Assembly: GCF_003012935.1 (NCBI RefSeq)
Contig: NZ_PUDR01000006.1
Coordinates: 186,001 to 250,000, forward strand
Source of the DNA: Pannonibacter carbonis
Lineage (GTDB): Bacteria; Pseudomonadota; Alphaproteobacteria; Rhizobiales; Stappiaceae
Direction of reading: 5' to 3'
DNA length: 64,000 nucleotides
The notes under the pieces are model-generated. The model was not told the DNA's origin and did no database searches. It was given only the letters and a program-made list of their open reading frames with translations. Position 1 is the first letter of the stretch. Every line of letters starts with the position of its first letter. The position numbers and the translations under genes were made by a program. Shown in pieces: positions 44,967 through 63,472 of this stretch.

Positions 44967-44987
44967 ACGCCGCCCGGCGGGCGGCGT
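44967..44987 (-). terminator. Hairpin after popZ
   Basis: A perfect 9-bp stem ACGCCGCCC/GGGCGGCGT with a 3-nt loop. Reading leftward, only a short T-stretch follows. It lies 31 bp after the DUF2497 gene stop. Confidence 0.55.
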
Positions 44988-45018
44988 CTCCAGATCGGTC
45001 GGCTCCGTCCGCGAACTG

Positions 45019-45991: not shown

Positions 45992-46016
45992 AAGGCCAGG
46001 CGCTTTGCCTGGCCTT
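45992..46016 (-). terminator. Terminator of tolC
   Basis: A perfect 10-bp stem AAGGCCAGGC (45992-46001) with GCCTGGCCTT (46007-46016), 5-nt loop. Reading leftward, a short T-run follows. It is 29 bp after the tolC stop. Confidence 0.7.
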
Positions 46017-46045
46017 GGTGATTCGTCTTGAAACTTGACCAGCCC

Positions 46046-47407: not shown

Positions 47408-47668
47408 TGAAGTCAGCCCCTTATGTCACGGACCCCCACCCGTGCCGAAAGATGGTGGCAGTATAGCCACCGGAAACACCCTGCCTACCCAGAACGATCC
47501 GGACGGATCGTTATTCCGGCACCGTGCGGCACGGGAGCAACATGTTGCGAAACGGTTAACAAGTCAAAGACGAAAACCGGCTGGCTTGCACTCCGGTGCC
47601 GGAGTTCAAGGCTGCCGCCGACCCGCAGGCCCGGAAGGGTGCAGGTCACGGGTCTGAGTGGATCCAGT

Positions 47669-48331
47669 TCAGAAGACGAACTGATGCGCCTTTTCAAAAC
47701 CCGGCAACAGATGCGCATTGGCATTGAAGCCGAAGCGGGCACCGATTGTCTCGCCGGAATCCTGATAGAGGCGCGCGACGCCTGCGCGGCCAAGGCCTTC
47801 GATCGCCACGAGACGGCCACCCGACTTCAGCTGACCAACCAGCGCCTCAGGAAGCACCTCGACGGTGCCATCCAGGACGATCACGTCATAGGGCCCTTCC
47901 GAGGCGCAGCCGGCGGTGAGCTTGCCCTCGACCACAGCGGCATTCTCGATGCCCAGTTCGACAAGGGTTGCCGATGCGCGTGCTGCCAGTTCTGCGTCTT
48001 CCTCGACCATGACGACTGCACCGGCCAGGCTTGCCAGCACGGCCGCGCTGTAGCCCGTGGAGCCACCGACCACCAGAACCACATCCGTCGGCTTGACGAG
48101 TGCCAGCTGGACCAGCTTGCCGAACACATGCGGCTTCATCAGATAGCGGTCCGGCCCGAGGTCGGAAACCAGGATGTCCTCGTCGATATAGGCGACGGGG
48201 CGCTTGGAGGCAGCCACGAACAGCTCGCGCGGGATACGCTCCATCGCATCGAGGATCCGAAGGTCGGTCACATCATTGGTCCGAAGCTGGTTGTCGACCA
48301 TTTTCGTGCGGGACTTTGCATAATCAGCCAT
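47669..48331 (-). CDS. Protein-L-isoaspartate O-methyltransferase family protein
   Basis: A 220-residue SAM-dependent methyltransferase of the PCMT family. It has N-terminal MVDNQLRTNDVTDLRILDAMERIPRELFV, as in the repair enzyme Pcm. Its SAM motif I, however, reads VVGGSTGYSAAVLASL rather than the usual E-I-GTGSGY-Q-A. The Ser/Thr loop before it (GPDRYLMKPHVFGKL) is also changed from the canonical GQTIS.P. It may thus be a divergent paralogue with altered activity. ATG 48331 (MADYAKS) has GAGG 6 bp upstream, so the longer frame is rejected. It lies upstream of tolC. Confidence 0.88.
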   Translation of the reverse strand: MADYAKSRTKMVDNQLRTNDVTDLRILDAMERIPRELFVAASKRPVAYIDEDILVSDLGPDRYLMKPHVFGKLVQLALVKPTDVVLVVGGSTGYSAAVLASLAGAVVMVEEDAELAARASATLVELGIENAAVVEGKLTAGCASEGPYDVIVLDGTVEVLPEALVGQLKSGGRLVAIEGLGRAGVARLYQDSGETIGARFGFNANAHLLPGFEKAHQFVF

Positions 48332-48584
48332 GGCGAGCCTCATGCCTTGCGCGGCCGCGCGGTGCGACCGTCCTCTTTCACCCGTTCCCTTAACGAGGCT
48401 GACCCGTGCTGACAAGGCCCACATGCGCTGCAACGCGGCCTCGTCCCCGCGTCATCGCGCCCCGCATGTAGTTCTGGCGGGATAGAGCGCCGGGTTTTCG
48501 GACGTTTCTGGGGGCCAGCAGGCCTTGTTGCTCCCCTGTCACGAAGCATTTGTGCAAATTCGGTGACAGGGGCTGCGGCGGCTC

Positions 48585-48612
48585 TTGACAGGACGAAGCA
48601 ACTCATTGAAAA
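48585..48612 (+). promoter_or_regulatory. Probable promoter of tRNA-Cys
   Basis: TTGACA (48585-48590) is an exact -35, with TGAAAA (48607-48612) 16 bp downstream and 10 bp before the tRNA 5' end. The -10 is weak. The rest of the 291-bp gap upstream holds no gene. Confidence 0.45.
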
Positions 48613-48622
48613 GGCACGCATC

Positions 48623-48696
48623 GGCCTCGTGGCGGAGTGGTGACGCAGCGGATTGCAAATCCGTGAACCCCGGTTCGATTCCGGGCGAGGCCTCCA
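48623..48696 (+). tRNA. tRNA-Cys(GCA)
   Basis: A 74-nt cloverleaf on plus. It has acceptor GGCCTCG/CGAGGCC, encoded CCA, anticodon GCA in the loop between GGATT and AATCC, and T-arm CGGTTCGATTCCG. It is followed after 8 bp by a strong terminator. Confidence 0.97.
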
Positions 48697-48704
48697 AGAT
48701 CTTG

Positions 48705-48731
48705 AAAAGGCACCGGTTTCCGGTGCCTTTT
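48705..48731. terminator. Bidirectional terminator after tRNA-Cys and the GGDEF/EAL gene
   Basis: A perfect 12-bp stem AAAAGGCACCGG (48705-48716) with CCGGTGCCTTTT (48720-48731), loop TTT. It serves tRNA-Cys rightward and the GGDEF/EAL gene leftward (stop at 48737). Confidence 0.88.
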
Positions 48732-48736
48732 CTGAT

Positions 48737-51061
48737 TCAGGGGCCTGGGAACACGAAGGCCGTCCCGAGCCTGGCCGCCATATCCGACGGCGCCATCGGC
48801 CGTGCGATCAGGAAGCCCTGGGCTTCGTTGCAGCCTGCCTGACGCAGGAACGCCAGTTGCTCCGGTGTTTCCACCCCTTCGGCAATCACCCGCAGATGCA
48901 GTTTGTGCCCGAGCGAGACGATGGCCTCGGCAATGCCACGTCCGCTGCTGTCCTCGGCGACATCGCGAACAAAAGCCTGGTCGATCTTCAGGCGCGAGAC
49001 GGGGAAGGATCGCAGCGCACTCAGACTGGAATAGCCGGTGCCAAAGTCATCAATCGCAAAGCGAACGCCGATGCTGCACAGGTCGTTCATTGTCGCGATT
49101 GCCTGCTCGACGTTGCGCATCAGCATGCTTTCCGTCAGTTCCAGTTCCAGCGCATGGGGGTCAAGGCCGGTGCGATTGAGGATGCCCTTCACCTGCTCTG
49201 CCCAACCGCGCTGTGCGAACTGGCGGGCAGAGACATTCACGCTCATGGTCACGGGCGGCAGCCCCTGGAGTTTCCAGGCCTGCGCCTGCCGGCAGGCCAT
49301 CTTCAACACCTGCTTGCCGAGCGCGTTGATCAGGCCCCCCTCTTCCGCGACAGGGATAAACAGGTCCGGCGCCAGCAGGCCGCGATCGGGATGCTGCCAG
49401 CGCACCAGGGCCTCGACGCCACAGATCTCCCCGGTCTCCAGATCGATCTGGGGCTGATAGTGCAGTACGAACTCACGCCGGGCGAGACCGGCCCGGATCT
49501 CCTCCAGCAGGACGAGATTGGGCGCGCTCTCGTCGGCGCGAAGCGGGCTGTAGATTTCAAAGGTGTTTCGGCCGGCTTGCTTGGCGCCATACATGGCCGC
49601 ATCCGCGTGAACCAGCAGCGTATCCGCATCCTCGCCATTCTGCGGATAGATGGAGATGCCCATGCTGCAGGTGACGTGAAAGGCCTGGCCGAGAACTTCA
49701 ACCGGTTCCGAGATTGCAGCCCTGAGACGGACAAGCAAAGACTGCAGGTTTGCCGGTTCTGCCGCCTCCCCGGTCAACAGCAGCACGAACTCATCTCCGC
49801 CAAGACGCAGCACCACATCACTTGCCCGCAGATGTGCCTTCATCCGCTCTGCGGCAATGACCAGGAGCTGGTCTCCGGCGGCATGGCCAAAGCTGTCATT
49901 CACTGCCTTGAAATGGTCGATGTCGAGAAAGACGACGGCAACGCGCGGGGTCTGGGGCGTTACGAGGCGAATCGCCTTATCCAGGCACTTGGCCAGCTGG
50001 CTGCGATTCGGAAGTCCGGTCAGAGGGTCATGGTGTGCGAGGAAGCGGATCTGCTCTTCGGCCTGCTTGCGCTCGATCGCGATGGCCGCAATGCGTGCCG
50101 TGTCATTGATGAGGCGCAATTCCGCGGGATCCGGCGCCTTCGGAGCACGGGAATAGATCGCAAAGGTTCCCAGCACCTTGCCGGCCAGTGACTTGATCGG
50201 CGTCGACCAGCAGGCGCGAACTCCGCCCAACTCGGCCAGCGCATGAAAATCTGCCCAAAGCGGATCAGTGAAAATGTCGGAAACGATCACCTGTTCGCGC
50301 CGATAGGCCGCCGTGCCGCAGGATCCGACGCATGGCCCGATTTCGATACCGTCGACGAGCCGGGTGTACTCGGGATTGAGGCTCGGGGCTGCCCCGTGGC
50401 GCAGGTGAACCCCATCCTCATCCAGCAGCAAGATCGACCCGAGCAGTCCGTCGAGTTGATCCTCGAGGAGACGCACCAGGCAATCCAGCACCTCAGACAG
50501 GGGAGCGCTGGAGGAAATCATCTCCAGTACCTGAGCCTGACCGTCGCGCAGCCGGTCGGCCTTCTTTCGTTCAGTAATGTCGCGGGAAATGCCGAAAACG
50601 CCGATCAGTTCGCCTGTGGAGCCGCGCAACGGAAACTTCGACGAGGCAAGCCAGCGCTTGCTGCCATTGGGCAGGACGACAAACTCCTCCTGGTCGATAA
50701 TGGGCTTGTCGGTCCGCATCACCTGCTTGGCATCGCGGTAGAACGTCATGGCAATCGGAAAGGGATACAGTTCAAGGTCCGTGCGTCCGATCAGGTCTTC
50801 CGCACTCTCGAAGCCAAGATCGCTTGCCATGGCACGGTTCGCCATGATGAAACGACAGTTCGTATCCTTGACGAACATGTAGTCGGACACCTGGTCGACC
50901 ATCGTGCGAAGCCATGTCTTTTCTTCGCGTAGGACGCGCAGAAATGACGCTTCGTTTGCATCAGCCTCAGCCTGCACTGTGGTTCCCGCGGAGCCCGCAG
51001 GTGATCCGCGATCGTCGTCTTCGACGATATCGTCTCCATAGGGTGTCAAGCGAGCAGCCAT
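48737..51061 (-). CDS. PAS-GAF-GGDEF-EAL cyclic-di-GMP signalling protein
   Basis: 774 residues without membrane segments. A PAS domain covers about 45-165 ([26 protein letters not shown] ... [14 protein letters not shown]). A GAF domain covers about 175-325, with Cys residues in [18 protein letters not shown] covers about 340-500 ([11 protein letters not shown]-like start [11 protein letters not shown], signature [10 protein letters not shown]). EAL covers about 515-765 ([35 protein letters not shown]). Both catalytic signatures are intact, so it could make or break c-di-GMP, with the sensor domains setting the balance. It starts at ATG 51061. No partner gene lies beside it. Confidence 0.94.
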
Positions 51062-51369
51062 TCAACGGCCCCTGTAATAACTTTCGGGTTTTTCCTCATT
51101 CAATCCAGACTTGCCAAATGAAACATAATTTCACGTTAAATCAAAGTTCGAAGCCCGTTTGCTTTGGATCTTATAGATAATATTTCTTAGCATTTCGGTC
51201 GCAATTTCCTCCATCTGCGTAAGCAACTGATCCCACGTCAGTTTCGTTGCAACGCAAGGCATGTCGCTTTGAAGCAAGATCGACCCGCTTGCAGTCTCCT
51301 CATCCCGGCGCGGATCAGCTAGACAAGAGCAAAGACCCTCGATCAGGGTCAGGGAGGATCATTTTCATC
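51062..51369. other. 308-bp gap between the GGDEF/EAL gene and cobC
   Basis: Divergent promoter region, AT-rich around 51075-51200. I looked for cobalamin-riboswitch hallmarks before cobC and saw none. A short TCATCCCGGCGCGGATC (about 51300) resembles one arm of the palindromic repeat family, but no second arm follows. No gene is visible. Confidence 0.45.
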
Positions 51370-52371
51370 ATGCGGCATGGCGGCGATCTGGCGGAAGCCC
51401 GCGCAATTCATGGCGGCGAACGCCACGGCTGGCTTGATCTGTCGACGGGCATCAACCCGAATGCCTGGCCGGTCCCTGCACAACTGGAGCGCCGGTTCTG
51501 GACAGACCTGCCATCATCGGCGGATCTCGCCGACCTTTTGGCCGCAGCAAGGCTTGCCTATGCGGCGCCGTCTCATCTAGGACTGACTGCCGCTCCAGGC
51601 ACCCAGGCGATCCTGCCGCTATTACCCCGGCTGGCACCGGACGGACCTGTCGCCATCGTCAGTCCGACTTACTCCAGCCACGCAGACGCCTGGCGGCGCG
51701 CTGGACGAGACGTCCGGGAGATCCCGTCCGCCTATGATGCGCCACCGGACGCGAAGGTCCTGGTGCTGGTCAATCCGAACAATCCCGATGGCCGCCTGCT
51801 CGCGCCTTCGGCCCTGCTCCATCTTGCCCGCGAGATGCAGGCGCGCGGCGGCCTTGTCGTGGTGGACGAGGCCTTTGCCGATGTCGTTCCCGGCCTCAGC
51901 GTCCTGCCGCATCTGACCGACGAGCCGATCCTGGTGCTGCGGTCCTTCGGCAAGTTTTTCGGCCTTGCCGGGGTGCGACTTGGATTTCTATGCGGTGAGG
52001 CTGACCTGTGCGAAACGGCAAGCCAGATGCTGGAAAGCTGGGCAGTCAGCGGGCCGGCGCTGGCAGTGGGTCAGGCGGCCCTGTCGGACCTTGCCTGGCA
52101 GGACGCCATGCGGCGACAACTCGCCGACGAGATGGCCGACCTGACGCTCGCCCTGTCGATGGCCGGTCTCACCGTGTTCGGCGGAACTGCCCTCTATGCC
52201 CTTGCCGGCTTGCGCAAGGCCGAGGCGATGCATTCAGCCCTGGCCCGCCGCCACATCTGGACCCGGCGCTTCGATAATTCCCCGACCTGGCTGCGCTTCG
52301 GGTTGCCGGGCAGCCCCGCTGCACTGGCTCGGTTGACTGCAGCTCTGGCCGACGCCGTGAACGAGATCTGA
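51370..52371 (+). CDS. cobC: Threonine-phosphate decarboxylase (cobalamin aminopropanol arm)
   Basis: A 333-residue PLP enzyme of the class I/II aminotransferase fold. It decarboxylates L-threonine 3-phosphate to (R)-1-aminopropan-2-yl phosphate for cobalamin. Signatures are GWLDLSTGINPNAWP, LVNPNNPDGRLL, VVDEAFADV and the cofactor lysine in SFGKFFGLAGVRLGF. In alphaproteobacterial naming it is cobC (CobD of Salmonella). ATG 51370 is used, but the good GGGAGG lies 12 bp away, rather far. In-frame ATC/ATT codons are closer, so the start deserves caution. cobD follows after 3 bp. Confidence 0.93.
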   Translation: MRHGGDLAEARAIHGGERHGWLDLSTGINPNAWPVPAQLERRFWTDLPSSADLADLLAAARLAYAAPSHLGLTAAPGTQAILPLLPRLAPDGPVAIVSPTYSSHADAWRRAGRDVREIPSAYDAPPDAKVLVLVNPNNPDGRLLAPSALLHLAREMQARGGLVVVDEAFADVVPGLSVLPHLTDEPILVLRSFGKFFGLAGVRLGFLCGEADLCETASQMLESWAVSGPALAVGQAALSDLAWQDAMRRQLADEMADLTLALSMAGLTVFGGTALYALAGLRKAEAMHSALARRHIWTRRFDNSPTWLRFGLPGSPAALARLTAALADAVNEI

Positions 52372-52374
52372 CCC

Positions 52375-53349
52375 GTGCTGCTGGATCCCTTGCTGCTTTT
52401 CGTCCTGCTGGCGGCGCTTGCGGTCGATGCCCTTGTCGGCGACCCGGACTGGCTCTGGCGCCGGCTGCCGCATCCGGTGGTCTGGATTGGGAGGCTTATC
52501 TCCTGGCTCGACACCAGCCTGAACCGGCCCAACTGGACCGCTGGCCTGCGCAGGACAGCCGGTGTTGTGGCACTTCTGATTCTGGTCACGTTGGGACTGG
52601 CGCTCGGCTCGATGATCCAGTCCGCACTGCTCTCCATGCCATTCGGCTGGCTTGCCCTTGCCATCTTTGCAAGCATCCTGCTGGCGCAGAACAGCCTTTA
52701 CAGCCACGTCCGCGCGGTCGCTGATGGGCTCGAACGGGAGGGGCTGGCTGGTGGGCGGCGGACCGTTGCCATGATCGTCGGCCGGGATCCGGAGCAACTG
52801 GATACCGCCGGCGTTTCCCGTGCCGCCATCGAATCCTGCGCCGAGAATTTCTCCGACGGCGTTGTTGCCCCCGTCGTCTGGTTTGCCCTCCTCGGCTTGC
52901 CAGGCCTCATCGCCTACAAGGCCGTCAACACCGCCGATTCCATGATCGGCCACAAGACCGAGCGGCATCAGGCCTTCGGCTGGGCCTCCGCCCGCTTCGA
53001 CGACCTCATAAACCTGCCGGCCTCGCGCCTGTCTGCCATTTTCATAGCGCTGGCAGCGCCGCTCGCGGGCGGCTCGAGCGCACGTGCCCTCGCGTGTGTT
53101 GCCCGCGATGCCGGTCAGCATCGCTCCCCCAACGCCGGCTGGCCGGAAGCGGCCATGGCCGGGGCGCTGGGCATTGCCCTTGCTGGCCCCCGCGCCTATG
53201 CCACCTACAGGGTCGAGGATCCCTTCATGAACCCGACCGGCAACAAGGCGATCGGCGCAGGGGAAATTCGGCGCGCGCTTCGGGTGCTTGCAGGGGCTTG
53301 CGTCATCGAGGCAATGCTGGTTCTGATACTCGCCTTGGTGCTTTTCTGA
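52375..53349 (+). CDS. cobD: Adenosylcobinamide-phosphate synthase (CbiB/CobD)
   Basis: A 324-residue inner-membrane protein that joins the aminopropanol arm to adenosylcobyric acid, acting right after CobQ and CobC. There are several membrane segments (LLLFVLLAALAVDALV; AGVVALLILVTLGLALGSMI; ALAGACVIEAMLVLILALVLF). The CbiB blocks GDPDWLWRRLPHPVVWIGRLI, ESCAENFSDGVVAPVVWF and YKAVNTADSMIGHKTERH are present. GTG 52375 follows the cobC stop by three bases, so the two are translationally coupled. Confidence 0.95.
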   Translation: MLLDPLLLFVLLAALAVDALVGDPDWLWRRLPHPVVWIGRLISWLDTSLNRPNWTAGLRRTAGVVALLILVTLGLALGSMIQSALLSMPFGWLALAIFASILLAQNSLYSHVRAVADGLEREGLAGGRRTVAMIVGRDPEQLDTAGVSRAAIESCAENFSDGVVAPVVWFALLGLPGLIAYKAVNTADSMIGHKTERHQAFGWASARFDDLINLPASRLSAIFIALAAPLAGGSSARALACVARDAGQHRSPNAGWPEAAMAGALGIALAGPRAYATYRVEDPFMNPTGNKAIGAGEIRRALRVLAGACVIEAMLVLILALVLF

Positions 53350-53387
53350 AGGGCTGTCCCTTCGCTCCTCTCACCTGCGACCCGTCC

Positions 53388-53993
53388 ATGCTCCCCTTCT
53401 CTGCAGCCGCTGAAACGAACAAGACGCCGATCCTCACCATTCTCAAGAATGCCTTCGCCGATGTGGCCCGGGTGCTGGAAATCGCCAGCGGCACCGGCCA
53501 GCATGCGGTGCATTTCGCCAGCAACCTGCCGCATCTGACCTGGCAGCCGAGCGACATTCCCGAGCATCTGGCCGGCCTCGAACAGCGGATCATCGAGACC
53601 GATCTCGACAACCTGTTCGAGCCCATCGGCCTCGACGTGCGCGACCTGCCCTGGCCGACGCCCGACCGGGACGCCGACGATGCCTTCGACGGCATCTTTA
53701 CCGCAAACAGCCTGCACATCATGAGTTGGGCCGGTGTGGAGGCCTTCTTCGCCGGCGTGGATGAAACGCTCGCACCGGGCGGCACGCTCGCCATCTATGG
53801 CGCGATGAAATATGGCGGCGCCTTCACCACGCCGAGCAACGAGGCTTTCGACCAGAGCCTGCGCAAGAAGGATCCGGAGAGCGGCCTGCGCGACTTCGAG
53901 GCCATCGACGCGCTCGCCCGCGGCATCGGCCTGACGCTGGTTGCCGATCATGCCATGCCGGCGAACAACCAGTTGCTGGTGTACCGGCGCTGA
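53388..53993 (+). CDS. DUF938 family SAM-dependent methyltransferase-like protein
   Basis: A 201-residue protein of DUF938. A class I methyltransferase motif I is visible (VLEIASGTGQHAVHFAS, about residue 27), with later acidic and hydrophobic strands (DGIFTANSLHIMSW; LAPGGTLAIYGAMKYGG). The substrate is unknown. It follows cobD by 38 bp on plus, so it may be cotranscribed with cobC-cobD, but a cobalamin role is not established. Its TGA stop directly abuts the stop of the convergent membrane gene, sharing the palindrome TGATCA. Confidence 0.9.
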   Translation: MLPFSAAAETNKTPILTILKNAFADVARVLEIASGTGQHAVHFASNLPHLTWQPSDIPEHLAGLEQRIIETDLDNLFEPIGLDVRDLPWPTPDRDADDAFDGIFTANSLHIMSWAGVEAFFAGVDETLAPGGTLAIYGAMKYGGAFTTPSNEAFDQSLRKKDPESGLRDFEAIDALARGIGLTLVADHAMPANNQLLVYRR

Positions 53994-54563
53994 TCAGTTG
54001 GTTCCGGACGGATCGATATCCTTTACGTCCATCCCGGGACCGGCTGCAAACAACCGCAACTGGTCGATGCCCTTGGAGAGCGCTCCAGAACACGCAATCA
54101 GGATCAAGGAACAGATCACTGTTCCTGCATCCGCATAGACATCGATCATGACTTGGGGCGCCGGGCTGTAGAAACTATCAGAAGCCTCCCGCATCGTTCG
54201 GTCTAGAACGAAGGCGCTGACCAGATCGAGCATGGCGGAAAAACAGAAGTAAACGCCAATCAGGGCAATTCCAGCCGCCTGCCAGCGCTGGACGACATCG
54301 CCGCTATCCGATGCTTGTCCATGTGTCGTTAGTCCGACCAGAATGACCCTCGGGTAACAGAACAGAACCACTGCAATTGCCATGTTCAGGCATAGCAGCG
54401 AGAGATCCAGCCAGTTGGTTGCCAGATCATTGGTTTGATACTGGTAGAATGTCATGGGCAGGTAGCGCGCTTCCCAGAGGAACATGTAGACGGAGAAGAC
54501 ACGCACGATCACGATGTAAAATGTAGAGTTCATTGCAGGATGATCCGTGGATTGCTGTGTCAC
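53994..54563 (-). CDS. Four-helix membrane protein of unknown function, paralogue 1
   Basis: 189 residues from GTG 54563, which has AGGACGGATA just upstream. ATG 54533 would give 179 residues and an N-terminus aligning better with paralogue 2. Four hydrophobic segments (about 13-30, 50-72, 90-115, 140-162) are separated by short polar loops. It is recognisably related to the protein at 54777-55268: IVRVFSVY versus IVRLFSAY at the start, VLFCYPRVIL versus AVFIAFPHLAL, and a matching third helix after Q..G. I do not recognise the family. It lies at the end of the minus-strand cobalamin cluster. An inverted repeat CCTAAGC/GCTTAGG (54571-54598) precedes it. Confidence 0.72.
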   Translation of the reverse strand: MTQQSTDHPAMNSTFYIVIVRVFSVYMFLWEARYLPMTFYQYQTNDLATNWLDLSLLCLNMAIAVVLFCYPRVILVGLTTHGQASDSGDVVQRWQAAGIALIGVYFCFSAMLDLVSAFVLDRTMREASDSFYSPAPQVMIDVYADAGTVICSLILIACSGALSKGIDQLRLFAAGPGMDVKDIDPSGTN

Positions 54564-54698
54564 TATCCGTCCTAAGCGAGGGCGAAAGACGGCTTAGGGG
54601 ATTTTCCGCTGGCCAGATGCGGTTGGCGCGATTGGTGAGGCCGAAACCATGCGCGGCTTCGTTCTGTAACTTTATCTTGCAGCATTCGACCGACACAA

Positions 54699-54773
54699 TC
54701 AACGCGAACGGCTGGCAGCGATCGCCAGCAGCGTTTCAACATCCAGCACCACCTCCAGATGCCGGGCCAAGTC
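54699..54773 (-). pseudogene. Displaced remnant of the cobQ 3' end
   Basis: Bases 54714-54773 match 55302-55361, the last coding bases of cobQ, at 55 of 60 positions with no gap, offset exactly 588 bp. Read in the cobQ frame it gives [20 protein letters not shown] then SRSR and a stop at 54699. The intact cobQ ends ...[23 protein letters not shown]. It has no start and no upstream part, so it is a fragment, not a gene. It directly abuts the stop codon of the membrane gene at 54777. Confidence 0.85.
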
Positions 54774-54776
54774 ATG

Positions 54777-55268
54777 TTACCTTCGCATGCGGATCAGTAG
54801 CCGCGAGACGGATCCCGGGCCGGTCATCAGCAGCAGCCCGATCAGCAGCATGACAACGTCTGAAATGCATTGCGGGAACAGATCGAACAGAAACTTCGTC
54901 AATCTCGGAGCCCCAGGATTGCTCAGCTCAAAGCCGAAATAGGACGTGATCGCGATGATCAACGCCTTTGCAGAGTTCAAGAACAGGAACAGTCCAACCA
55001 GCGATACGCCGACGACCTGCAGCTGATCACCTGCGTTGGACCCTGCCGACTTCTCGTCGCGCGGGAAATCAATGCTCCGCAATGCAAGGTGCGGAAAGGC
55101 AATAAACACCGCACAAACAAAAATCACAGACAAAAGCGCGATCAGCTGGGCTGCCTTCACTACGTCCAGCCCATCCCACGTGAACGTGAAGAGGTATGGC
55201 AAGAACACAAGACAACTGTTGAGAATGTAAGCTGAAAAAAGTCGAACGATAAGCAAGGCCCACGCCAT
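54777..55268 (-). CDS. Four-helix membrane protein of unknown function, paralogue 2
   Basis: 163 residues from ATG 55268, with GAAAGAGA as ribosome-binding site. Four hydrophobic segments lie at about 2-28, 38-60, 85-110 and 128-152. It is a diverged paralogue of the next gene (53994-54563): similar length, helix spacing and scattered identities. It lies 24 bp after the cobQ stop and right before the displaced cobQ fragment, so it is enclosed by two copies of the cobQ 3' end. The family is not recognised. Codon use and the loops look less GC-rich than the cob genes, hinting at later arrival. Confidence 0.72.
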   Translation of the reverse strand: MAWALLIVRLFSAYILNSCLVFLPYLFTFTWDGLDVVKAAQLIALLSVIFVCAVFIAFPHLALRSIDFPRDEKSAGSNAGDQLQVVGVSLVGLFLFLNSAKALIIAITSYFGFELSNPGAPRLTKFLFDLFPQCISDVVMLLIGLLLMTGPGSVSRLLIRMRR

Positions 55269-55292
55269 AGAATCTCTTTCACTTTCTGAACG

Positions 55293-56792
55293 TCAGCTTC
55301 GGGCAGCGATCGCCAGCAGCGTTTCAACATTCAGCACCGCCTCCAGATGCCGGGACAGATCGTCCATAATCGCGTCGATCCGCTTGTTGTAGGCAAGATC
55401 CGACACGGCGCCAAAGCCCGACAGGAAGGCCGTGCGGTACGCGTCGTCCGTGAAAAGGCCGTGAAGATAGGTCCCTGTGACCCGCCCGTCGGTTGACGAT
55501 GCGCCGTCCACTCTGGGGGCTGCACCTTGCCCGTCGAGGCGGAACACCGGGCGAGCACAGTCCGCGCCCGTGGTGCGGCCGATGTGGATCTCGTAACCGC
55601 TGACGCTTGCCCCGCTTGCCAGATGCGTGCCCGTTGCCTTGACCAGCGACTTGTCAGCCGTCAGCACCGTCTCGACATCAAGGTATCCCAGCCCCTCGAC
55701 AGTCCCGGCCCTGCCCTCGATCCCCGCGGGATCAGAAATGGTTCGCCCGAGCATCTGGTAGCCGCCGCAGATCCCGAGCACGTGACCGCCGCGCCGGTGA
55801 TGCGCCTTCAGGTCGATATCCCAGCCCTGCGCCCGGAAGAACTCCAAATCACCGATGGTCGACTTGGACCCCGGCAGCAGGACCAGATCCGCATCCAGAG
55901 GAAGCGGCGACCCGGGAGGAACCAGTTCCAGCGTGACATCAGGCTCCAGCCGCAAAGGGTCGAGATCATCGAAATTGGCGATCCTGGAGATGATGGGGAC
56001 GACGACCTTGATCGGGCCATTGCCTTCCCCTCGCGCCAGATCCAGCGCATCCTCCGCCGGCAGCTTGCCTGCGTCCGCAAACCACGGCACGACACCAAGC
56101 CCCGTCCAGCCCGTACGCGTCACGATTTCCTGCATTCCCGCGTCGAACAGCGAGGGATCACCGCGAAACCGGTTGATGAAAAACGCCTTGATCCGCGCCC
56201 GCTCGGCCGCCTCCAGTACCGCGTGGGTGCCGACCACCGAGGCGATGACGCCGCCCCGGTCGATGTCGCCGCACAGGATCACGGGCAGGTCGGCCGCCTC
56301 GGCGAAACCCATGTTGGCGATATCGCCGGCCCGCAGGTTGATTTCGGCCGGGCTGCCGGCGCCTTCGACGATCACCAGATCCGCTGTTGCGGCAAGATGT
56401 GAAAAACTCTCCAGAACTTTCGGCAGAAGCTCGGCCTTGCGGGTGCCGTACTCCCGCGCGCGCATCGTTCCGAAGCGCTTGCCCTGCACGATCACCTGCG
56501 CCCCCGTATCGGTTTCCGGCTTCAGCAGCACCGGGTTCATGTGCACGCTCAAGGGCCTGCGGCACGCCATCGCCTGCAGGGCCTGAGCCCGGCCGATCTC
56601 GCCGCCATCGGCAGTGACAGCGGCGTTGTTCGACATGTTCTGCGGCTTGAACGGAGCCACAGCCATGCCCCGGTTGGCAAACAACCGGCACAGGCCTGCC
56701 ACGATCAGGCTCTTGCCGACATTCGAGCCTGTGCCCTGGATCATCAGGGCCGGTGTGCGGGATCGCTGGTCAACCACGGGCACTGTCTCCAA
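55293..56792 (-). CDS. cobQ: Cobyric acid synthase
   Basis: A 499-residue ATP-dependent amidotransferase that amidates four side chains of adenosylcobyrinic acid a,c-diamide. The N-terminal P-loop-like synthetase domain begins [22 protein letters not shown]. The C-terminal class I glutaminase-like domain has the nucleophile region [11 protein letters not shown] and later [11 protein letters not shown]. The start is TTG 56792 (METVPVV), with GTG 56783 and 56777 as alternatives. It lies 19 bp after cobO. Its last ~20 codons are duplicated 588 bp downstream. Confidence 0.96.
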
Positions 56793-56811
56793 GCCGGACC
56801 GGGGAACTTCC

Positions 56812-57501
56812 TCAGTACTCGATGCCGGACTGCGGCTTCACGCCGGAGCGGAACGGGTGCTTCACCTGTTCCATCTCGGTGACGAGATCCGCCACCTCGA
56901 TCAGCTCGTCCTTGGCGTTACGGCCGGTGATGACGACATGCACGTCCTCCGGCTTTTCGGTCTTCAGGAACTCCACCACTTCCTCGACCGGAAGATAGTC
57001 GTAGCGCAGCACGATGTTCAGCTCGTCGCAGAGCACCAGGTGATGCTCACCTGAGACGATCAGCTCCTTGGCCGCTTCCCAGGCCTCGCGGGCGGCGGCG
57101 ATGTCGCGCTGCCGGTCCTGGGTCTCCCAGGTGAAGCCCTCGCCCATGCGCCGCACGGTGACGAGGTCGCCGAACCGCTCCAGCGCATGGGTCTCGCCGG
57201 TGTCGAGCCGGCCCTTGACGAACTGCACCACGCCCACCTTGTAGCCATGGCCGAGCGAGCGGAACACCATGCCGAAGCCGGCGGTGGACTTGCCCTTGCC
57301 CTTGCCGGTGTGGACGATGATCAGGCCCTTGGCGATGGTCTTGGTGGCCATGATCTTGTCGCGCGCCGCCTTCTTCTTGCGCATCTTGTCGGCGTGGCGG
57401 GCGTTCAGCTCCTCCTCGGTCATGCTGCGCTCGGCTTCGTCAGACGTCGTTTCGGAGGGCGTCGTTTCGGAGGGCGTCGTGTCGGAAGTCGTATCTGTCA
57501 C
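56812..57501 (-). CDS. cobO: Cob(I)yrinic acid a,c-diamide adenosyltransferase
   Basis: 229 residues. CobO transfers the adenosyl group from ATP to the cobalt of the corrin. It is a P-loop protein with [16 protein letters not shown]. Further blocks are [27 protein letters not shown] and [10 protein letters not shown]. The first ~25 residues are low-complexity (Thr/Ser/Glu), coded by an imperfect tandem 15-bp repeat at about 57440-57485, and may vary between strains. ATG 57501 overlaps the cobN stop by 4 bp, indicating coupling. cobQ follows 19 bp later. Confidence 0.96.
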
Positions 57502-60500
57502 GGGATCAGTTCCTTGGTGGCGGCCTGTTTCAGGTCGGAAATCTCGGCGTGGACGGAATTGCGGCGCGGGATCCAGAAGCCGCGGCGGATGGCTTCGCTG
57601 AAGCGGTCCAGCATGGACGCAAGGGCGCCCGGATTGGCGTCCCGGATGAACTCGCGCACCGTTTCATTGCCAATGTAGGCATCGAACAGCTGGTCGAAGT
57701 GATGGTCGCCGACCGCACGCGTGGTGGCGGCGAAGGCATGCAGGTAGTCGAGCGTCGCCGCCATTTCGGACGCGCCCTTGTAGCCATGGCGCATGGCCCC
57801 GGCGATCCATTTCGGGTTGGCCGCCCGGCCCCGCACGACGCGCGAAATTTCTTCCGACAGCGCCCGCACCACGGGCCGCTCGGGACGGGAGTGGTCGGCG
57901 TGATAGCTCGTCGGCACCGCCCCGGTCAGGCTCTCGACCGCCGCCGCCAGCCCGCCCTCGAACTGGAAATAGTCGTCGCTGTCGAGAAGGTCATGCTCGC
58001 GGTTGTCCTGGTTCTGCAGCACGATGTCGACGCCAGACAGCCGGCTCTCGAACTGCCCCCGCGCCTCCTCGCCGCCGGCCCCGCCGCCATAGGCATGGCC
58101 GCCCCAGGCCAGGAACGCCTCGGCCAGATCGCCGCGCGTGTCCCACTGCCCGTCGTCCATCAGGCCCTGCAGGCCGGCGCCATAGGCTCCGGGCCTTGCC
58201 CCAAAGACGCGGAACGCCGCCTGCCGGGCCGCCTCGGCCGCCGCCAGACCATCGGCCGCAAGCCGTGCAGTCTCGGCGCGGACCCGCGCCGCAATCGGGT
58301 TCGCGCTCTCCGGCTCCTCAAACTCTGCGACGGCAGCCACCGCACTCTGGAACAGGTCGATCTGATGCGGGAAGGCATCGCGGAAGAAGCCGGAGACACG
58401 CAGCGTCACGTCGATGCGCGGCCGCTTCAGCGCCGACAGGGGCAGGATCTCGAAGCCGTTGACCCGGCCCGAGCCCGGTTCCCAGACAGGCCGCGTGCCG
58501 ATCAGCGCCAGCGCCTGCGCCACATCATCGCCGCCGGTGCGCATGTTGGCCGTGCCCCAGCAGGTGAGCACCAGAGCCTTGGGCCACTCGCCCTCCTCCT
58601 GGAAGTAGCGCTCGGCCACAAGCGCCGCCGAGGCCTCGCCGATACGCCAGGCGGTCTCGGTCGGCACGGTGCGCACATCGACGGAATAGAAGTTGCGCCC
58701 GGTCGGCAGCACGTCCGGCCGGCCCCGCGTCGGCGCGCCGGAGGGACCGGGCGGAACGAAGCGCCCGTCGAGCGCTGCCAGCACCGCCGCGAGCTCGGCC
58801 GGTCCCGAGCCGACCACCGCCGGCCTGATGCGCGTTTCAACCTCCTCGAGAACCGCGTGTGTCTCAGGCAGATGAAGCCCTTTCGTCTGACCTGAAACAA
58901 GCTGCGCCGCCAGCAGCTCCAGCCGCTCGACCGTATCGCCGCAGGTCCGCCAGGGCTGGTCCGTCAGCCCGGCCAGCAGCGCCGGCCTCGGCCCCTGCCA
59001 GGGGGCAGCATAGTCGCAGGCCAGAGGGTCGAAGGCTGCGACTTCCGATCGAGGAGCCGCTTCCCCCAGAAGGTCCCGCGCGAGCGCCCGCAGCAGGCTG
59101 TCGTCGGCGGAACGGGACCCGCGCGGCACCCGCGCCAGCGCCACCAGCAAATCCGTCAGCAGACGCCCCTTCGGCGACAGGCCCAGCACATGCAGTCCGT
59201 CACGGATCTGCAGTTCCTTGAGATCGCAAAGATGCGCATCGAGCCGCGCCAGCCGCGTCGTCTCGTCCATGTCCGGCGTCAGGCCGATGTCCCGGTCGAG
59301 GCCATGGGCAGCAGCCAAGTCGAGGATGTCGCGGGTCAGTTGCTTCAGCCGGCGCGGATCGACGCCGCTGGCGAGATAGTACTCGTCGAGCAGCGTTTCC
59401 ATTTCATTGGCAACGCCATGACTTTCCGCCCGGGTGAGCGGCGGCGTCAGGTGGTCGATGATGACTGCCGCCGTCCGGCGCTTGGCCTGCGCACCCTCGC
59501 CAGGGTCATTGACGATGAAGGGATAGATGTTGGGCGTCGGACCCAGGATGGCGTCGGGATAGCAGCCCTCGCTCAGCGCCAGCGCCTTGCCCGGCAGCCA
59601 TTCCAGATTGCCGTGTTTGCCCAGATGCACCACCGCATCAACGCCGGCCAGATGGCGCAGGAAGGCGTAGAAGGCGAAGTAGTTGTGCGGCGGCACCAGA
59701 TCCGGATCGTGATAGGTGGCCTTCGGGTCGATGTTGTAGCCGCGCGAGGGCTGGATGCCGACCAGCACCGCGCCGAAGCGGGCAAGCCCGAGGCGGAAGG
59801 CGTTGCCTGCGACAAACGGATCATCCTCCGGCGCGCCCCAGCGTTCGGTCACCGCCTGGCGCATCGGCTCGGGCAGCCCGTTGAAAAAGGCGAGATACTG
59901 CTCGAGCGGCAGGAAACTCTCACAAGTTCGCTCGTCGAGGGCGGCAATGGCGTTGGTCACGCCGCGCGTCAGCCGGGCGATCAGGGCCGCGCCGTCCTCC
60001 GGCGCGCCCTCGACCCCATAGCCGGCCGCTGCCATCGCCTGCAGGAGATGGGCGCAGGATGCCGGCGTGTCGAGGCCGACGCCATTGGCCAGCCGATCAT
60101 CGGCATTGGGGTAGTTCGCCAGGATCAGCGCCACCTTGCGCTCGGCCGGCGCCTTGCGGCCGAGCCGCGCCCAGGCAGCTGCAAGCCGGGCGACATGGCC
60201 CATGCGGTTGGCATCCGGCACGAAGCGCACTGAGCGGAACTGCGTCCGCTGGTCATAGACCCCTTCCTCCTTGAAGGAGACCGCACGGGTCATCAGCCGG
60301 CCGTCGATCTCCGGCAGGACCACATGCATCGCCAGATCGCGGATCGACAGTCCTTGCGGGCTCTCAAGCCAGCCCTCGCGGGAGGAGGACGAGAACACCA
60401 TCTGCAGCACCGGACGCCCCGGCCGGTCGAGCGGCGTCGGCTGGTGCGGCCCGCCCGTGCTGGAGACCGCAAAGGCGGTGGCGTTGAGGACCACCGAGGG

Positions 60501-61277
60501 CGGGCAGACCTCCATCAGCCCGCCGAGGATGGCGGCCGACTCGGCCTCTTTCAGCGAGGAGACGAAGATGGGGAGCGGGTTGAGCCCGTTTGCCGTCAGC
60601 TCCTTGCACAGGGCCTCCACCGGCGCGGTCTCGCCCGCCTGCACCAGCGCCCGGTAGAAGACGACCGCCGCAACGGGCCGGGCCGGATCAGCCCAGCTCG
60701 CGATGAGATCGGACAGGGCCGGAGCGGCATGGCCGGGCAGGAACAGGCCGGCACGCGGCAGCGGCGCGGGCGGGGCCGGCTCCGCGGCGAGGCCCGCCAG
60801 ATGGGCGCCGTAGCGCAGCACGTTGGCGTGGTTCTCCGGACCGCCCTCGAGGAAATAGCGGTAGAGCCGGCGCACCGCCTCGACCGGAACCGAGGAGCGG
60901 GCGGCCAGCGCCTCGTCCCACTTGTCGCAGCCGGACATGATCGCAAGCTTCGCCCCGCCCCGGTTGGCCTCCTCGCAAAGCCGCTCCACGCCATAGGGCC
61001 AGTAGCTCTCGCCGCCGAGCAGGCGCACGATCACCAGCTTGGAGCGCGACAGGGTCTTCTCGGCGTAAAGGTCAACCGAATAGGGGTGCCCGAGCGCCAT
61101 CAGGCTGGCGAGCCGCAGGCTGGCAAAGGCCTCGCCCAGCTTGCCCCGCGCCGCACAGAGGGCCGCCAGTTCCGTATCGGCCGCCGACAGCACGACGAGA
61201 TCGGCCGGATCCTGGGCGAGATCCACCGCGTCGTTGCCGTCTTCCACCCGTCGGGTCTGGCTTGCAAGAATATGCAT
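57498..61277 (-). CDS. cobN: Cobaltochelatase subunit CobN
   Basis: The 1,259-residue large subunit of the aerobic ATP-dependent cobaltochelatase (CobNST), which inserts cobalt into hydrogenobyrinic acid a,c-diamide. Family blocks include GGESYWPYGVERL, VHLGKHGNLEWLPGKALALS, IYPFIVNDPGEGAQAKRRTAAVIIDH and MRTGGDDVAQALALIGTRPVWEPGSGRV. They continue to the end (HGYKGASEMAATLDYLHAF). CobS and CobT are not in the window. I use ATG 61277; a GTG one codon earlier is also in frame. A 515-bp repeat-filled gap separates it from cobW. Confidence 0.96.
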   Translation of the reverse strand: MHILASQTRRVEDGNDAVDLAQDPADLVVLSAADTELAALCAARGKLGEAFASLRLASLMALGHPYSVDLYAEKTLSRSKLVIVRLLGGESYWPYGVERLCEEANRGGAKLAIMSGCDKWDEALAARSSVPVEAVRRLYRYFLEGGPENHANVLRYGAHLAGLAAEPAPPAPLPRAGLFLPGHAAPALSDLIASWADPARPVAAVVFYRALVQAGETAPVEALCKELTANGLNPLPIFVSSLKEAESAAILGGLMEVCPPSVVLNATAFAVSSTGGPHQPTPLDRPGRPVLQMVFSSSSREGWLESPQGLSIRDLAMHVVLPEIDGRLMTRAVSFKEEGVYDQRTQFRSVRFVPDANRMGHVARLAAAWARLGRKAPAERKVALILANYPNADDRLANGVGLDTPASCAHLLQAMAAAGYGVEGAPEDGAALIARLTRGVTNAIAALDERTCESFLPLEQYLAFFNGLPEPMRQAVTERWGAPEDDPFVAGNAFRLGLARFGAVLVGIQPSRGYNIDPKATYHDPDLVPPHNYFAFYAFLRHLAGVDAVVHLGKHGNLEWLPGKALALSEGCYPDAILGPTPNIYPFIVNDPGEGAQAKRRTAAVIIDHLTPPLTRAESHGVANEMETLLDEYYLASGVDPRRLKQLTRDILDLAAAHGLDRDIGLTPDMDETTRLARLDAHLCDLKELQIRDGLHVLGLSPKGRLLTDLLVALARVPRGSRSADDSLLRALARDLLGEAAPRSEVAAFDPLACDYAAPWQGPRPALLAGLTDQPWRTCGDTVERLELLAAQLVSGQTKGLHLPETHAVLEEVETRIRPAVVGSGPAELAAVLAALDGRFVPPGPSGAPTRGRPDVLPTGRNFYSVDVRTVPTETAWRIGEASAALVAERYFQEEGEWPKALVLTCWGTANMRTGGDDVAQALALIGTRPVWEPGSGRVNGFEILPLSALKRPRIDVTLRVSGFFRDAFPHQIDLFQSAVAAVAEFEEPESANPIAARVRAETARLAADGLAAAEAARQAAFRVFGARPGAYGAGLQGLMDDGQWDTRGDLAEAFLAWGGHAYGGGAGGEEARGQFESRLSGVDIVLQNQDNREHDLLDSDDYFQFEGGLAAAVESLTGAVPTSYHADHSRPERPVVRALSEEISRVVRGRAANPKWIAGAMRHGYKGASEMAATLDYLHAFAATTRAVGDHHFDQLFDAYIGNETVREFIRDANPGALASMLDRFSEAIRRGFWIPRRNSVHAEISDLKQAATKELIP

Positions 61278-61387
61278 CACTGGTCCATCTGCACGGACAT
61301 CCGGTGTCCGGTTCGGTTGGTCGGGTCAGGGTTAAGTCTCGGGGCCTGTCTCGGGGCCGGTCTTTGCGCCCCTGCACCGCCTCTCGA

Positions 61388-61559
61388 CCCCTCCCCCTCG
61401 TGGGGAGGGGTCAGGGGTGGGGGGCTGAGGGCAAAGACTGTCCATCCGAAGTAGAGCCAGGGCCCGGACTTGTCATCCCCATGGTCGGCAACCATTCGAG
61501 GCTGGCATTCGCTTCCCGGCCACAGCCCCCCACCCTACCCCTCCCCACGAGGGGGAGGG
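61388..61559. repeat. GC-rich intergenic palindrome 1 (cobW-cobN gap)
   Basis: A left arm of about 38 bp (61388-61427, beginning CCCCTCCCCCTCGTGGGGAG) recurs inverted at 61523-61559 with only a few differences. Each arm is itself partly self-complementary. The centre is about 95 bp of unique sequence. There is no coding frame with gene character. Confidence 0.8.
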
Positions 61560-61617
61560 ATGCTGAGAGGCCGCGTCCAACGAGACGAGGCATTTGCGGA
61601 CCCCGCACTTGCCGCAG

Positions 61618-61762
61618 CCCCCTCTCCCCCCTTGAGGGGGAGATGTCTGCGCGAGCAGACAGAGGGGGGTAAACCACCCGACGGCAAACTCGGAACCCGC
61701 TGAAACACGGCTGCCCCCCTCTGCCCCCTGTCGGGGGCATCTCCCCCTCAAGGGGGGAGAGG
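61618..61762. repeat. GC-rich intergenic palindrome 2 (cobW-cobN gap)
   Basis: The arm CCCTCTCCCCCCTTGAGGGG (61618-61648 region) recurs inverted near 61735-61762. A second inner inverted pair (GACAGAGGGGGG with CCCCCCTCTG) nests inside. It is similar in style but not in sequence to palindrome 1, 60 bp to the left. Together they fill the space where cobN transcription from cobW would have to pass. Confidence 0.8.
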
Positions 61763-61792
61763 CAAGCAGCGCCCTGCCCCTGGTCCCTGCCC

Positions 61793-62902
61793 TCAGGCCG
61801 CCTTCGCCTTGCCGAGGGCTTCGGTGATCGACGACAGGTCCAGCCCCTTCAGGCCGATGACGACGACATGGCCGGGCATCCTGGCCCCGGCGGCGAACCA
61901 GGTCTCGACGCGCGGGCCGACGGCCTGCACCAGCGCAGGCGCCGCCTTGCCCGTCACCGACACCGCGCCCTTGATGCGCAGCACGCCGGGCAGCGCCATC
62001 GCCCGGGCGACGGCCTGCTCCAGATCCTTCAGGCTTGCGAAGGCCGTGACAGGCAAAACGTGGCTCTCGAAGTCATCGTGATGATGGTCATGATCGTCGT
62101 CATCGTGATCGTGATCGTGATCATCATCGTGTTCATGGTCATCATCATGGTCGTGATGGTGGTGGTGATGCGCCCGGCGCGCGGCCAGATCGTCCTCGGC
62201 TGCGGCCGAACGGCCGAGCAGCACGTCGACCGGCAGGTTGCCCTTCTCGGCATGAATGATCTCGACGCCTGACCGGACATCCTCGGTGATGTGCTCGCGG
62301 ATATGGGCAAGCTGGTCAGCATCCACCAGATCGGCCTTGTTGAGCACGACGAGATCGGCGCAGGCGAGCTGGTCGTGGAACAGTTCCTCGACCGGATTGT
62401 CGTGGTCGAGCGAAGCATCGGCCGCCCGCTGCGCCTCCAGCGCCTCCTCGTCGAGCGCGATGCGGCCTTCCGCCAGAGCGGCGGCGTCCAGCACGGTGAT
62501 GACCCCGTCCACCGTCACGCGGGTCTTGACGCTCGGCCAGGAGAAGGCGCGCACCAGCGGCTGCGGCAGCGCGAGGCCCGAGGTCTCGATGACGATGTGA
62601 TCGGGCGGCGTCTCGCGCGCCAGCAGCATTTCCATGGTCGGCAGGAAGTCGTCGGCCACGGTGCAGCAGATGCAGCCGTTGGTCAGCTCGACCACATCAT
62701 CGGCGCTGCAGGACGGATCAACGCAGCCATCCAGCAGCGAGCCGTCGAAGCCCATGTCGCCGAACTCGTTGACGATGAGCGCGATGCGGCGGCCGCCGGC
62801 ATTGAGCAGCAGGTTGCGGATCAGCGTTGTCTTGCCGGCACCGAGGAAGCCGGTGACGATGGTGGCGGGGATCTTGCCGCCCTGAGAAAGCACGGTGGTC
62901 AT
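61793..62902 (-). CDS. cobW: CobW-family GTPase / metal chaperone
   Basis: 369 residues. It is a G3E-type P-loop GTPase required in the aerobic cobalamin pathway and thought to supply cobalt to CobN. Walker A is GFLGAGKT (residues 18-25). The metal-binding CxCC is at Cys77-Cys80 (NGCICC). NKAD (residues 188-191) reads the guanine base. Residues 245-277 are an unbroken run of 33 His/Asp/Glu, with 16 histidines, likely a cobalt/zinc store. The C-terminal CobW_C domain follows (about 280-360). ATG 62902 overlaps the cobP stop by 4 bp. Confidence 0.96.
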   Translation of the reverse strand: MTTVLSQGGKIPATIVTGFLGAGKTTLIRNLLLNAGGRRIALIVNEFGDMGFDGSLLDGCVDPSCSADDVVELTNGCICCTVADDFLPTMEMLLARETPPDHIVIETSGLALPQPLVRAFSWPSVKTRVTVDGVITVLDAAALAEGRIALDEEALEAQRAADASLDHDNPVEELFHDQLACADLVVLNKADLVDADQLAHIREHITEDVRSGVEIIHAEKGNLPVDVLLGRSAAAEDDLAARRAHHHHHHDHDDDHEHDDDHDHDHDDDDHDHHHDDFESHVLPVTAFASLKDLEQAVARAMALPGVLRIKGAVSVTGKAAPALVQAVGPRVETWFAAGARMPGHVVVIGLKGLDLSSITEALGKAKAA

Positions 62903-63465
62903 AACTGGATATCCGGACAGGAACTGGGTTTGAGAAGGAGCGGCAGCCCGCAGGCGACCAGCACGACGCGGTCGCAGACCCGGGCAAACTCCTGGTTGAG
63001 ACGGCCCTGCGCGTCGCGGAAGGCGCGCGCCATGGCGTTGTCGGGCACGATGCCGAGCCCCACCTCGTTGGTCACGAAGATCACCGGGCCGGCGAGACCG
63101 GGAACTGCAGCAGCAAGGTTTGCGGTTTCACCGGCGAGGTCCCGGTCGGCCAGCATCAGGTTGGTGAGCCAGAGCGTCAGGCAGTCGACGAGCACGACCT
63201 TGTCAGGGTTGCAGTGCTGCGCGAGCGTGCCGACCAGATCGAGCTGTTCCTCGACTGTCGTCCAGCGCTCGTCGCGCCGGGCCTTGTGATGACCGATGCG
63301 TTCGGCCATCTCCTGGTCCCAGGCGGCGGATGTGGCGACATAAACAGGCTCACGGCCGGCGCCAAGCGCCAGCCGTTCTGCAAAGCTGCTCTTTCCGGAC
63401 CGGGCCCCGCCGGTGACCAGCACCGAGCGTGGACAGTCGCCAGGAGTGCCTGGCTCGACCGACAT
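62899..63465 (-). CDS. cobP: Bifunctional adenosylcobinamide kinase / guanylyltransferase
   Basis: A 188-residue enzyme (CobP; CobU in Salmonella). It phosphorylates adenosylcobinamide and attaches GMP, preparing it for the lower ligand. Walker A is GGARSGKS (residues 19-26). The guanylyl-accepting histidine is at 59-60 in GHHKARRDERW. VDCLTLWLTNLM and FVTNEVGLGIVP are family blocks. It is joined to cobW by a 4-bp overlap and to the hupE-like gene by a 7-bp gap. Confidence 0.96.
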   Translation of the reverse strand: MSVEPGTPGDCPRSVLVTGGARSGKSSFAERLALGAGREPVYVATSAAWDQEMAERIGHHKARRDERWTTVEEQLDLVGTLAQHCNPDKVVLVDCLTLWLTNLMLADRDLAGETANLAAAVPGLAGPVIFVTNEVGLGIVPDNAMARAFRDAQGRLNQEFARVCDRVVLVACGLPLLLKPSSCPDIQL

Positions 63466-63472
63466 GGGTCAA

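What the first reader, a model, noticed from the sequence alone, without database searches (positions are those of the whole stretch)
54699..55365. Cassette enclosed by two copies of the cobQ 3' end
The last 60 coding bases of cobQ (55302-55361) recur at 54714-54773 with 55 of 60 identical, no gaps, offset 588 bp, and still in frame to a different C-terminus (SRSR). Between the copies lies one small membrane-protein gene. This is the footprint expected when a cassette enters at the 3' end of a gene, restores it with its own copy of the end, and leaves the old end displaced. A tandem duplication of 'cobQ end plus membrane gene' is the other reading. The cobQ ends are ~92% identical while the two membrane proteins are far more diverged, which favours import of a diverged cassette over simple duplication. 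No integrase lies nearby, so the mechanism would be homologous recombination or a trans-acting enzyme.
Basis: partly seen in the sequence, partly recalled or inferred. Interest (0 to 1): 0.72.

Follow-up and report, generated by a model that had tools for sequence, protein, structure and literature searches.

The report
Imported gene displaced cobQ's old end
A small membrane-protein gene sits behind this bacterium's vitamin B12 gene cobQ together with a second copy of the end of cobQ, and a sister species has the same site without it, so this looks like a before-and-after pair of a gene gained or lost by ordinary DNA recombination.

Summary
The cobQ tail (H1, 55302-55361) recurs 588 bp downstream (H2, 54714-54773) at 55 of 60 bases. 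H2 reads in frame to SRSR and lies beyond a 163-aa membrane gene (p163). Congener G003 has the empty site: cobQ ends in SRSR and a 96%-identical copy of the 189-aa gene (p189) follows. Site by site, G003 matches H1 upstream and H2 downstream of one 7-bp stretch (55332-55338): one crossover between the copies separates the two genomes. The other 83 family cobQ loci read (of 87 genomes) show no tail copy. p163 and p189 fall in different clades of a fast-evolving, cobQ-linked family, so local duplication is very unlikely. The 3' half of cobQ in G000 and G003 is itself imported and groups with G083, another genus, which carries p163's nearest relative 23 nt after cobQ (24 nt here). Best reading: a donor cobQ tail plus p163 was added by homologous recombination, displacing the old tail and p189. 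It works like Rhs C-terminal displacement, but at a housekeeping gene. Not settled: whether p163 entered on the G000 branch, or entered earlier and G003 lost it through the copies. No donor haplotype was found.

The parts
55293..56792 (-). cobQ (cobyric acid synthase, 499 aa), ending ..[13 protein letters not shown]
   Evidence: NCBIfam NF001989 E 2.3e-186 and TIGR00313; Pfam GATase_3 and CbiA
55293..56075 (-). 3' half of cobQ (from about residue 240; edge approximate), of imported type, sister to G083 of another genus; shared with G003, not with G001
   Evidence: identity to G001 falls from 0.94 to 0.67 between the alignment windows 210-240 and 240-270; C-half tree 99/93 with G083; AU test
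55302..55361 (-). H1: first copy of the cobQ tail, part of the working cobQ
   Evidence: 55 of 60 with H2
55332..55338 (-). 7-bp identical stretch that holds the crossover separating G000 from G003 (H2 counterpart 54744-54750)
   Evidence: G003 matches H1 on one side and H2 on the other
54777..55268 (-). p163: small membrane-protein gene (163 aa, four hydrophobic segments), start 24 nt after the cobQ stop; no match in G003
   Evidence: nearest relative G083, 38%
54714..54773 (-). H2: displaced cobQ tail, in frame to ..AASRSR*, no longer part of cobQ; begins 3 nt after the p163 stop
   Evidence: its part downstream of the crossover stretch is identical to the working cobQ end of G003
54699..54713 (-). 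remaining codons and stop of the displaced tail (SRSR*)
   Evidence: same as the end of G003 cobQ
53994..54563 (-). p189: second small membrane-protein gene (189 aa), the cobQ-linked gene shared with G003 (96% identical)
   Evidence: 21% identical to p163
53349..53993 (+). DUF938 methyltransferase-like gene, right-hand conserved flank (its start was not determined)
   Evidence: Pfam DUF938 E 8.1e-67; about 95% identical in protein in G003 and G001

Best explanation
The stretch is a recombinational import at the 3' end of cobQ. A donor piece made of a diverged cobQ tail plus its native downstream membrane gene (p163) was added by homologous recombination in the cobQ tail. The working cobQ took the donor tail (..AARS*), and the recipient's old tail (..AASRSR*) and its linked gene p189 were pushed 588 bp downstream. 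Shown: the two copies; the empty site in G003; the single crossover within 7 bp that relates G003 to G000; that p163 and p189 are not recent duplicates; the mosaic cobQ. Inferred: that the donor carried cobQ-p163 as a unit; that the join was one crossover with a small circle (or an equivalent repeated donor) carrying one cobQ tail; and that host RecA-type recombination, not an integrase, did it. The same crossover run backwards removes p163 and restores cobQ, so the unit is in principle excisable. The timing, G000 branch or earlier with loss in G003, is open.
For: Empty site in G003 with cobQ end SRSR followed by p189; flanks 0.95-0.98 identical per 250 bp in the nearest kilobase. In the stretch compared (to 55411), every site upstream of 55338 where H1 and H2 differ has the H1 base in G003, save 55367 where G003 has a base of its own; from 55331 to the H2 stop every differing site has the H2 base. 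Of 84 family loci read (87 genomes searched), only G000 has a tail copy and only G000 has two members of the membrane family; 20 of 84 have at least one within 1.5 kb. p163 is 38% identical to the G083 gene and 21% to p189, and groups with cobQ-linked genes of G083, G028, G025, G106 and G108 (100/99). Spacing from cobQ stop to p163 start is 24 nt, 23 nt in G083. The cobQ C-half of G000 and G003 groups with G083 (99/93), the N-half with G001. p163 and p189 are 53.5% GC, cobQ 65.1%. Of five integrase-family places in the genome (one under the cut-off), none is on contig C30.
Against: Five genomes in the genus do not fix the direction of the G000/G003 difference. No donor haplotype (cobQ-p163 without p189, of this species' cobQ type) was found. 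p163 is only 38% identical to its nearest relative found, so the donor is not close to any genome searched. The tree tool warned that long branches meet where p163 joins G083 and where the two p clades part. The AU test for the N-half is borderline (p 0.048), the tested groups were chosen after trees had been seen, and the 30-row N-half tree does not recover the genus as one clade. Only two of the differing sites (55339, 55331) lie in the middle of the shared tail, so the exact 7-bp placing would fail if one of them were a later point mutation. Raw reads were not available, so a misassembly cannot be formally excluded.
Confidence: 0.66

Rival explanations
1. Earlier entry and later loss: p163 with its cobQ 3' half entered the common ancestor of G000 and G003 upstream of the old tail H2 and p189, by homology at one end and illegitimate joining at the other. 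G003 then lost p163 by recombination between H1 and H2.
For: The imported cobQ 3' half is shared by G000 and G003 and groups with G083, whose linked gene is p163-type, so p163 could have come with it. H2 keeps the alanine (DLA) seen in 17 of 20 aligned tails, where H1 and G003 have serine, as expected if H1 and H2 were two separate alleles. No circle is needed.
Against: It needs one more event than entry on the G000 branch. H1 and H2 are closer to each other (55 of 60) than H1 is to G083, its nearest relative outside G003 (0.64 in the last alignment window), which would need a close donor or later gene conversion.
Confidence: 0.36
2. Local tandem duplication of 'cobQ end plus membrane gene', followed by divergence of one membrane gene.
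For: The two proteins are distant relatives in tandem.
Against: p163 is closer to a gene of another genus (38% with G083) than to p189 (21%), and the two clades are separated at 100/99. The tails are 92% identical while the genes are not.
Confidence: 0.03
3. Integrase-driven element using the cobQ tail as its attachment site.
For: The layout equals attL-cargo-attR with a short crossover stretch.
Against: No integrase-family match on the contig. No recurrent tail copies in the other 83 family loci read. No relative of p163 in the plasmid and phage collections and none confirmed in a scan of viral contigs for close relatives.
Confidence: 0.05
4. Assembly artefact or chance similarity.
For: Reads could not be checked.
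Against: The place lies inside a 267-kb contig (position, length). G003 independently carries the SRSR tail and p189. Chance matches reach only 32 of 60 in 83 other loci.
Confidence: 0.02

Closest known systems
Rhs C-terminal displacement (Jackson et al. 2009, PMC2935791; passages read)
   Same: A new gene end with its downstream gene is added, the old end is shunted downstream as a dissociated piece, homology lies in the shared part of the gene, and a circular intermediate with a single crossover is proposed there.
   Different: Here the gene is a housekeeping enzyme, the tail hardly changes in protein sequence, one displaced piece is seen and not an array, and a pair of genomes places the crossover in 7 bp.
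Sequential displacement of T6SS effector-immunity modules in Vibrio cholerae (Kirchberger et al. 2017, PMC5361080; passages read)
   Same: The incoming module displaces the old end and keeps the old downstream gene. Homology-facilitated illegitimate recombination is proposed there.
   Different: No toxin-immunity pair is recognised here. The cargo is a small membrane protein of unknown role.
Minimal mobile elements of Neisseria (search listing only; definition recalled)
   Same: Different cargo genes between conserved neighbours, exchanged through flanking homology, without mobility genes.
   Different: Exchange there replaces the cargo. Here new cargo was added and a gene end is present twice.
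Homology-facilitated illegitimate recombination and small variable segments (PMC2884548, passages; PMC3240628, search listing with start of abstract)
   Same: One homologous end and one illegitimate end can add foreign DNA.
   Different: The G000/G003 pair fits one reciprocal crossover and by itself needs no illegitimate join.

Membership tests
C-terminal displacement (Rhs type) | working gene has a new 3' end; the old 3' end is displaced downstream and still recognisable | tested here: met
   H1/H2 and G003; which end is older rests on the unsettled direction of the event
C-terminal displacement (Rhs type) | ends and downstream genes have different ancestry from the core | tested here: met
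   N-half and C-half trees conflict; p163 and p189 in different clades (N-half AU test borderline)
C-terminal displacement (Rhs type) | rhs gene or polymorphic toxin with a variable tip and arrays of dissociated tips | tested here: not met
   the gene is cobQ, with a single displaced piece
C-terminal displacement (Rhs type) | circular intermediate | not testable with these tools
   the single-crossover pattern is compatible but no circle can be seen
Minimal mobile element | variable cargo between conserved flanking genes among relatives (definition recalled) | tested here: met
   cobQ to DUF938/cbiB holds a membrane gene, a phosphatase-like gene, a DMT-type transporter-like gene or nothing (the last two gene labels by eye)
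Minimal mobile element | cargo exchange through homologous flanks (definition recalled) | tested here: met
   G000 vs G001: 0.92-0.99 up to about residue 240 of cobQ, 0.47-0.83 after it, 0.95-0.97 again in the two 250-bp windows of 53501-54000, inside DUF938
Minimal mobile element | replacement, not addition with a duplicated gene end (definition recalled) | tested here: not met
   both p163 and p189 are present with two tails
Integrase-driven island | integrase gene in or near the element | tested here: not met
   five PF00589 places in the genome, none on contig C30
Integron gene cassette | attC site and integron integrase | not tested
   attC was not searched for; no integrase-family match on this contig
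Transposon | transposase, terminal inverted repeats, short target duplication | tested here: not met
   p163 has no transposase match in Pfam or NCBIfam; none of the four inverted-repeat pairs of at least 20 nt in 53000-57500 has its arms at the two ends of the unit; the repeated stretch is about 60 bp

The most novel reading that the evidence does not exclude
The cobQ tail serves as a reloadable, integrase-free docking site. Fast-evolving membrane genes circulate in this family as units of about 0.6 kb, each with its own cobQ tail, and enter or leave by single crossovers that always leave cobQ whole.
Probability: 0.13. Interest if true: 0.62.

Novelty: new variant of a known kind. Interest (0 to 1): 0.42.

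Why it matters
End displacement is described for Rhs and T6SS toxin loci. Here the same footprint sits at a housekeeping vitamin B12 gene, with a pair of genomes that places the crossover in 7 bp. It offers a clean example of how bacteria can add, and not merely swap, small genes behind conserved ones without mobile-element machinery nearby, and it marks the interval between cobQ and cbiB in this family as a variable-gene site.

Tried and rejected
Local tandem duplication: contradicted by identities and tree. Common repeat: rejected. Regulatory RNA in the repeat: at gathering thresholds Rfam found only a tRNA at 48623-48693 in 44000-64000. Carriage of p163 by plasmids or phages: no match; viral contigs: 22 pattern matches, none confirmed as a relative, in a scan for close relatives only. 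Wider spread: 3 of 397 genomes drawn from the order match p163 (own genome included), all of the same family; within the family 16 of 87 match p163 and 17 of 87 match p189, one of the p163 matches (G009) not near cobQ and with a stop inside. Co-import test, comparing p-gene identity with cobQ C-half identity between genomes: not decisive; within the p189 clade, p genes at 0.82-0.85 cobQ identity range from 0.32 to 0.77, and the G000-G083 pair (0.38 at 0.83) lies inside that range. Function of p163: only a sub-threshold Pfam hit to Jiraiya (19.5 bits, cut-off 27) and no NCBIfam hit. No structure was predicted, because only the two window proteins could have served as its alignment. The genus was not named by any search. 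The family is inferred to be Stappiaceae: G021 and the record of Labrenzia sp. OB1 share a contig length of 267671 and overlapping coordinates, and the family name is recalled. A paper search with a guessed genus name listed nothing on this locus. PMC3784515 (merodiploids): outline and abstract seen, not used.

Full report
What is there. cobQ (55293-56792, minus strand) is followed by p163 (54777-55268), a second copy of the cobQ tail H2 (54714-54773, running in frame to SRSR and a stop that ends at 54699), p189 (53994-54563) and, on the other strand, a DUF938 gene. H1 (55302-55361) and H2 share 55 of 60 bases at an offset of 588. In the 64-kb window the only other direct repeat of at least 40 nt within 5 kb reported is a pair of tRNA-like stretches.

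The empty site. A whole-genome search placed the window in a genome (G000) with four congeners, G001-G004. G003, with cobQ 99% identical in protein, has cobQ ending in ..[15 protein letters not shown], then p189 (96%), then DUF938, and no match to p163 in its genome. The alignment shows a clean absence of the unit, with flanks 0.95-0.98 identical per 250 bp in the nearest kilobase. Site by site, G003 carries the H1 base at the differing positions 55339, 55355, 55358, 55359 and 55362 and at those further upstream as far as compared (55411), except 55367 where it has a base of its own. It carries the H2 base at 55331, 55301 and every differing position down to the H2 stop. In the further 75 bases beyond the stop it follows H2 except at three sites, one of which happens to equal the base on the p163 side. 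The switch lies in a 7-bp stretch identical in both copies, 55332-55338. The two genomes therefore differ here by one crossover between H1 and H2. The 7-bp placing rests on two sites inside the shared tail, 55339 and 55331; if one were a later point mutation, the stretch would be wider.

How unusual. I read the region downstream of cobQ in 84 of 87 family genomes (one had no cobQ match, two were not fetched). G000 scores 52 of 60; the other 83 have no copy of their own cobQ tail above 32 of 60 in up to 3.5 kb (in three of them the cobQ end is irregular). Members of the p163/p189 family lie within 1.5 kb behind cobQ in 20 of the 84 genomes, one each, except two in G000. In other genomes the interval between cobQ and DUF938 or cbiB holds a phosphatase-like gene, a DMT-type transporter-like gene, or nothing (gene labels by eye).

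Ancestry. p163 groups with cobQ-linked genes of G083, G028, G025, G106 and G108 (support 100/99); p189 groups with the rest. The tool warned of long branches at these joins, so the identities matter: p163 is 38% identical to the G083 gene and 21% to p189. The start of p163 lies 24 nt after the cobQ stop, 23 nt in G083. The cobQ gene is a mosaic: against G001 the DNA identity is 0.92-0.99 up to about residue 240, then 0.47-0.83, and DUF938 is again 0.95-0.97. The 81-row N-half tree places G000, G003 and G001 together and with G002 and G004; the C-half tree places G000 and G003 with G083 (99/93) and G001 with G002, G004 and G006 (97/93). AU tests on 30 of the 81 rows reject G000+G001+G003 for the C-half (p 0.0115), reject the whole genus as one clade for the C-half (p 0.022), and are borderline against G000+G003+G083 for the N-half (p 0.048). 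These groups were chosen after trees had been seen, and the 30-row N-half tree does not itself hold the genus together, though it keeps G000, G001 and G003 as one clade.

Mechanism. The tail copies, the empty site and the single crossover are shown. I infer that a donor cobQ tail with its native neighbour p163 was added by homologous recombination, so that the old tail and p189 were displaced. A circle carrying one tail plus p163, integrating by one crossover, gives exactly the G000 arrangement from a G003-like recipient. The alternative is that the unit arose earlier, by homology at one end and illegitimate joining at the other, and that G003 lost p163 by the reverse crossover. H2 keeps the alanine found in 17 of 20 aligned tails, where H1 and G003 have serine, which fits either a diverged donor or an old allele. 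No integrase-family match lies on the contig. A ComEC-type competence gene is present elsewhere on the contig, outside the window, so DNA uptake is conceivable, but untested.

Comparison. The nearest described process is Rhs C-terminal displacement with circular intermediates (PMC2935791, passages), followed by the displacement of T6SS effector-immunity modules in V. cholerae (PMC5361080, passages). The footprint is alike; the gene class is not. It is therefore filed as working like them, not as a member. Neisseria minimal mobile elements (listing only; definition recalled) share the variable cargo between conserved neighbours but replace and do not add.

Verdict. A real recombination footprint with an unusually clean pair of filled and empty sites, of moderate interest. 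The direction of the G000/G003 difference, the donor and the role of the membrane proteins remain open.

Noticed in passing
51247-53349 (aminotransferase-like gene and cbiB): G000 differs strongly from both G003 and G001 here (about 0.61-0.91 identity per 250 bp), although DUF938 next to it is 0.93-0.97 identical: a second likely recombination tract in the cob cluster.
   Followed up: partly
L032, cbiB of G003: cbiB of G003 matches in two overlapping pieces that do not form one frame, suggesting a frameshift or a sequencing error.
   Followed up: no
1582-1658 and 1704-1780: Two identical 77-nt copies that look like tandem tRNA genes, 122 nt apart (tRNA identity by eye).
   Followed up: no
L167, L168, L169 (G084, G072, G096), between cobQ and the membrane gene: In G084 a reading frame between cobQ and the membrane gene carries a cysteine-phosphatase-like motif (HCRAGIGRSG, by eye); G072 and G096 have a gap of about the same size at the same place.
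   Followed up: no
L164 and L226 (G109): The p163-type gene lies beside DUF938 but about 19 kb from cobQ on the same contig: a case where the pair has been separated.
   Followed up: no
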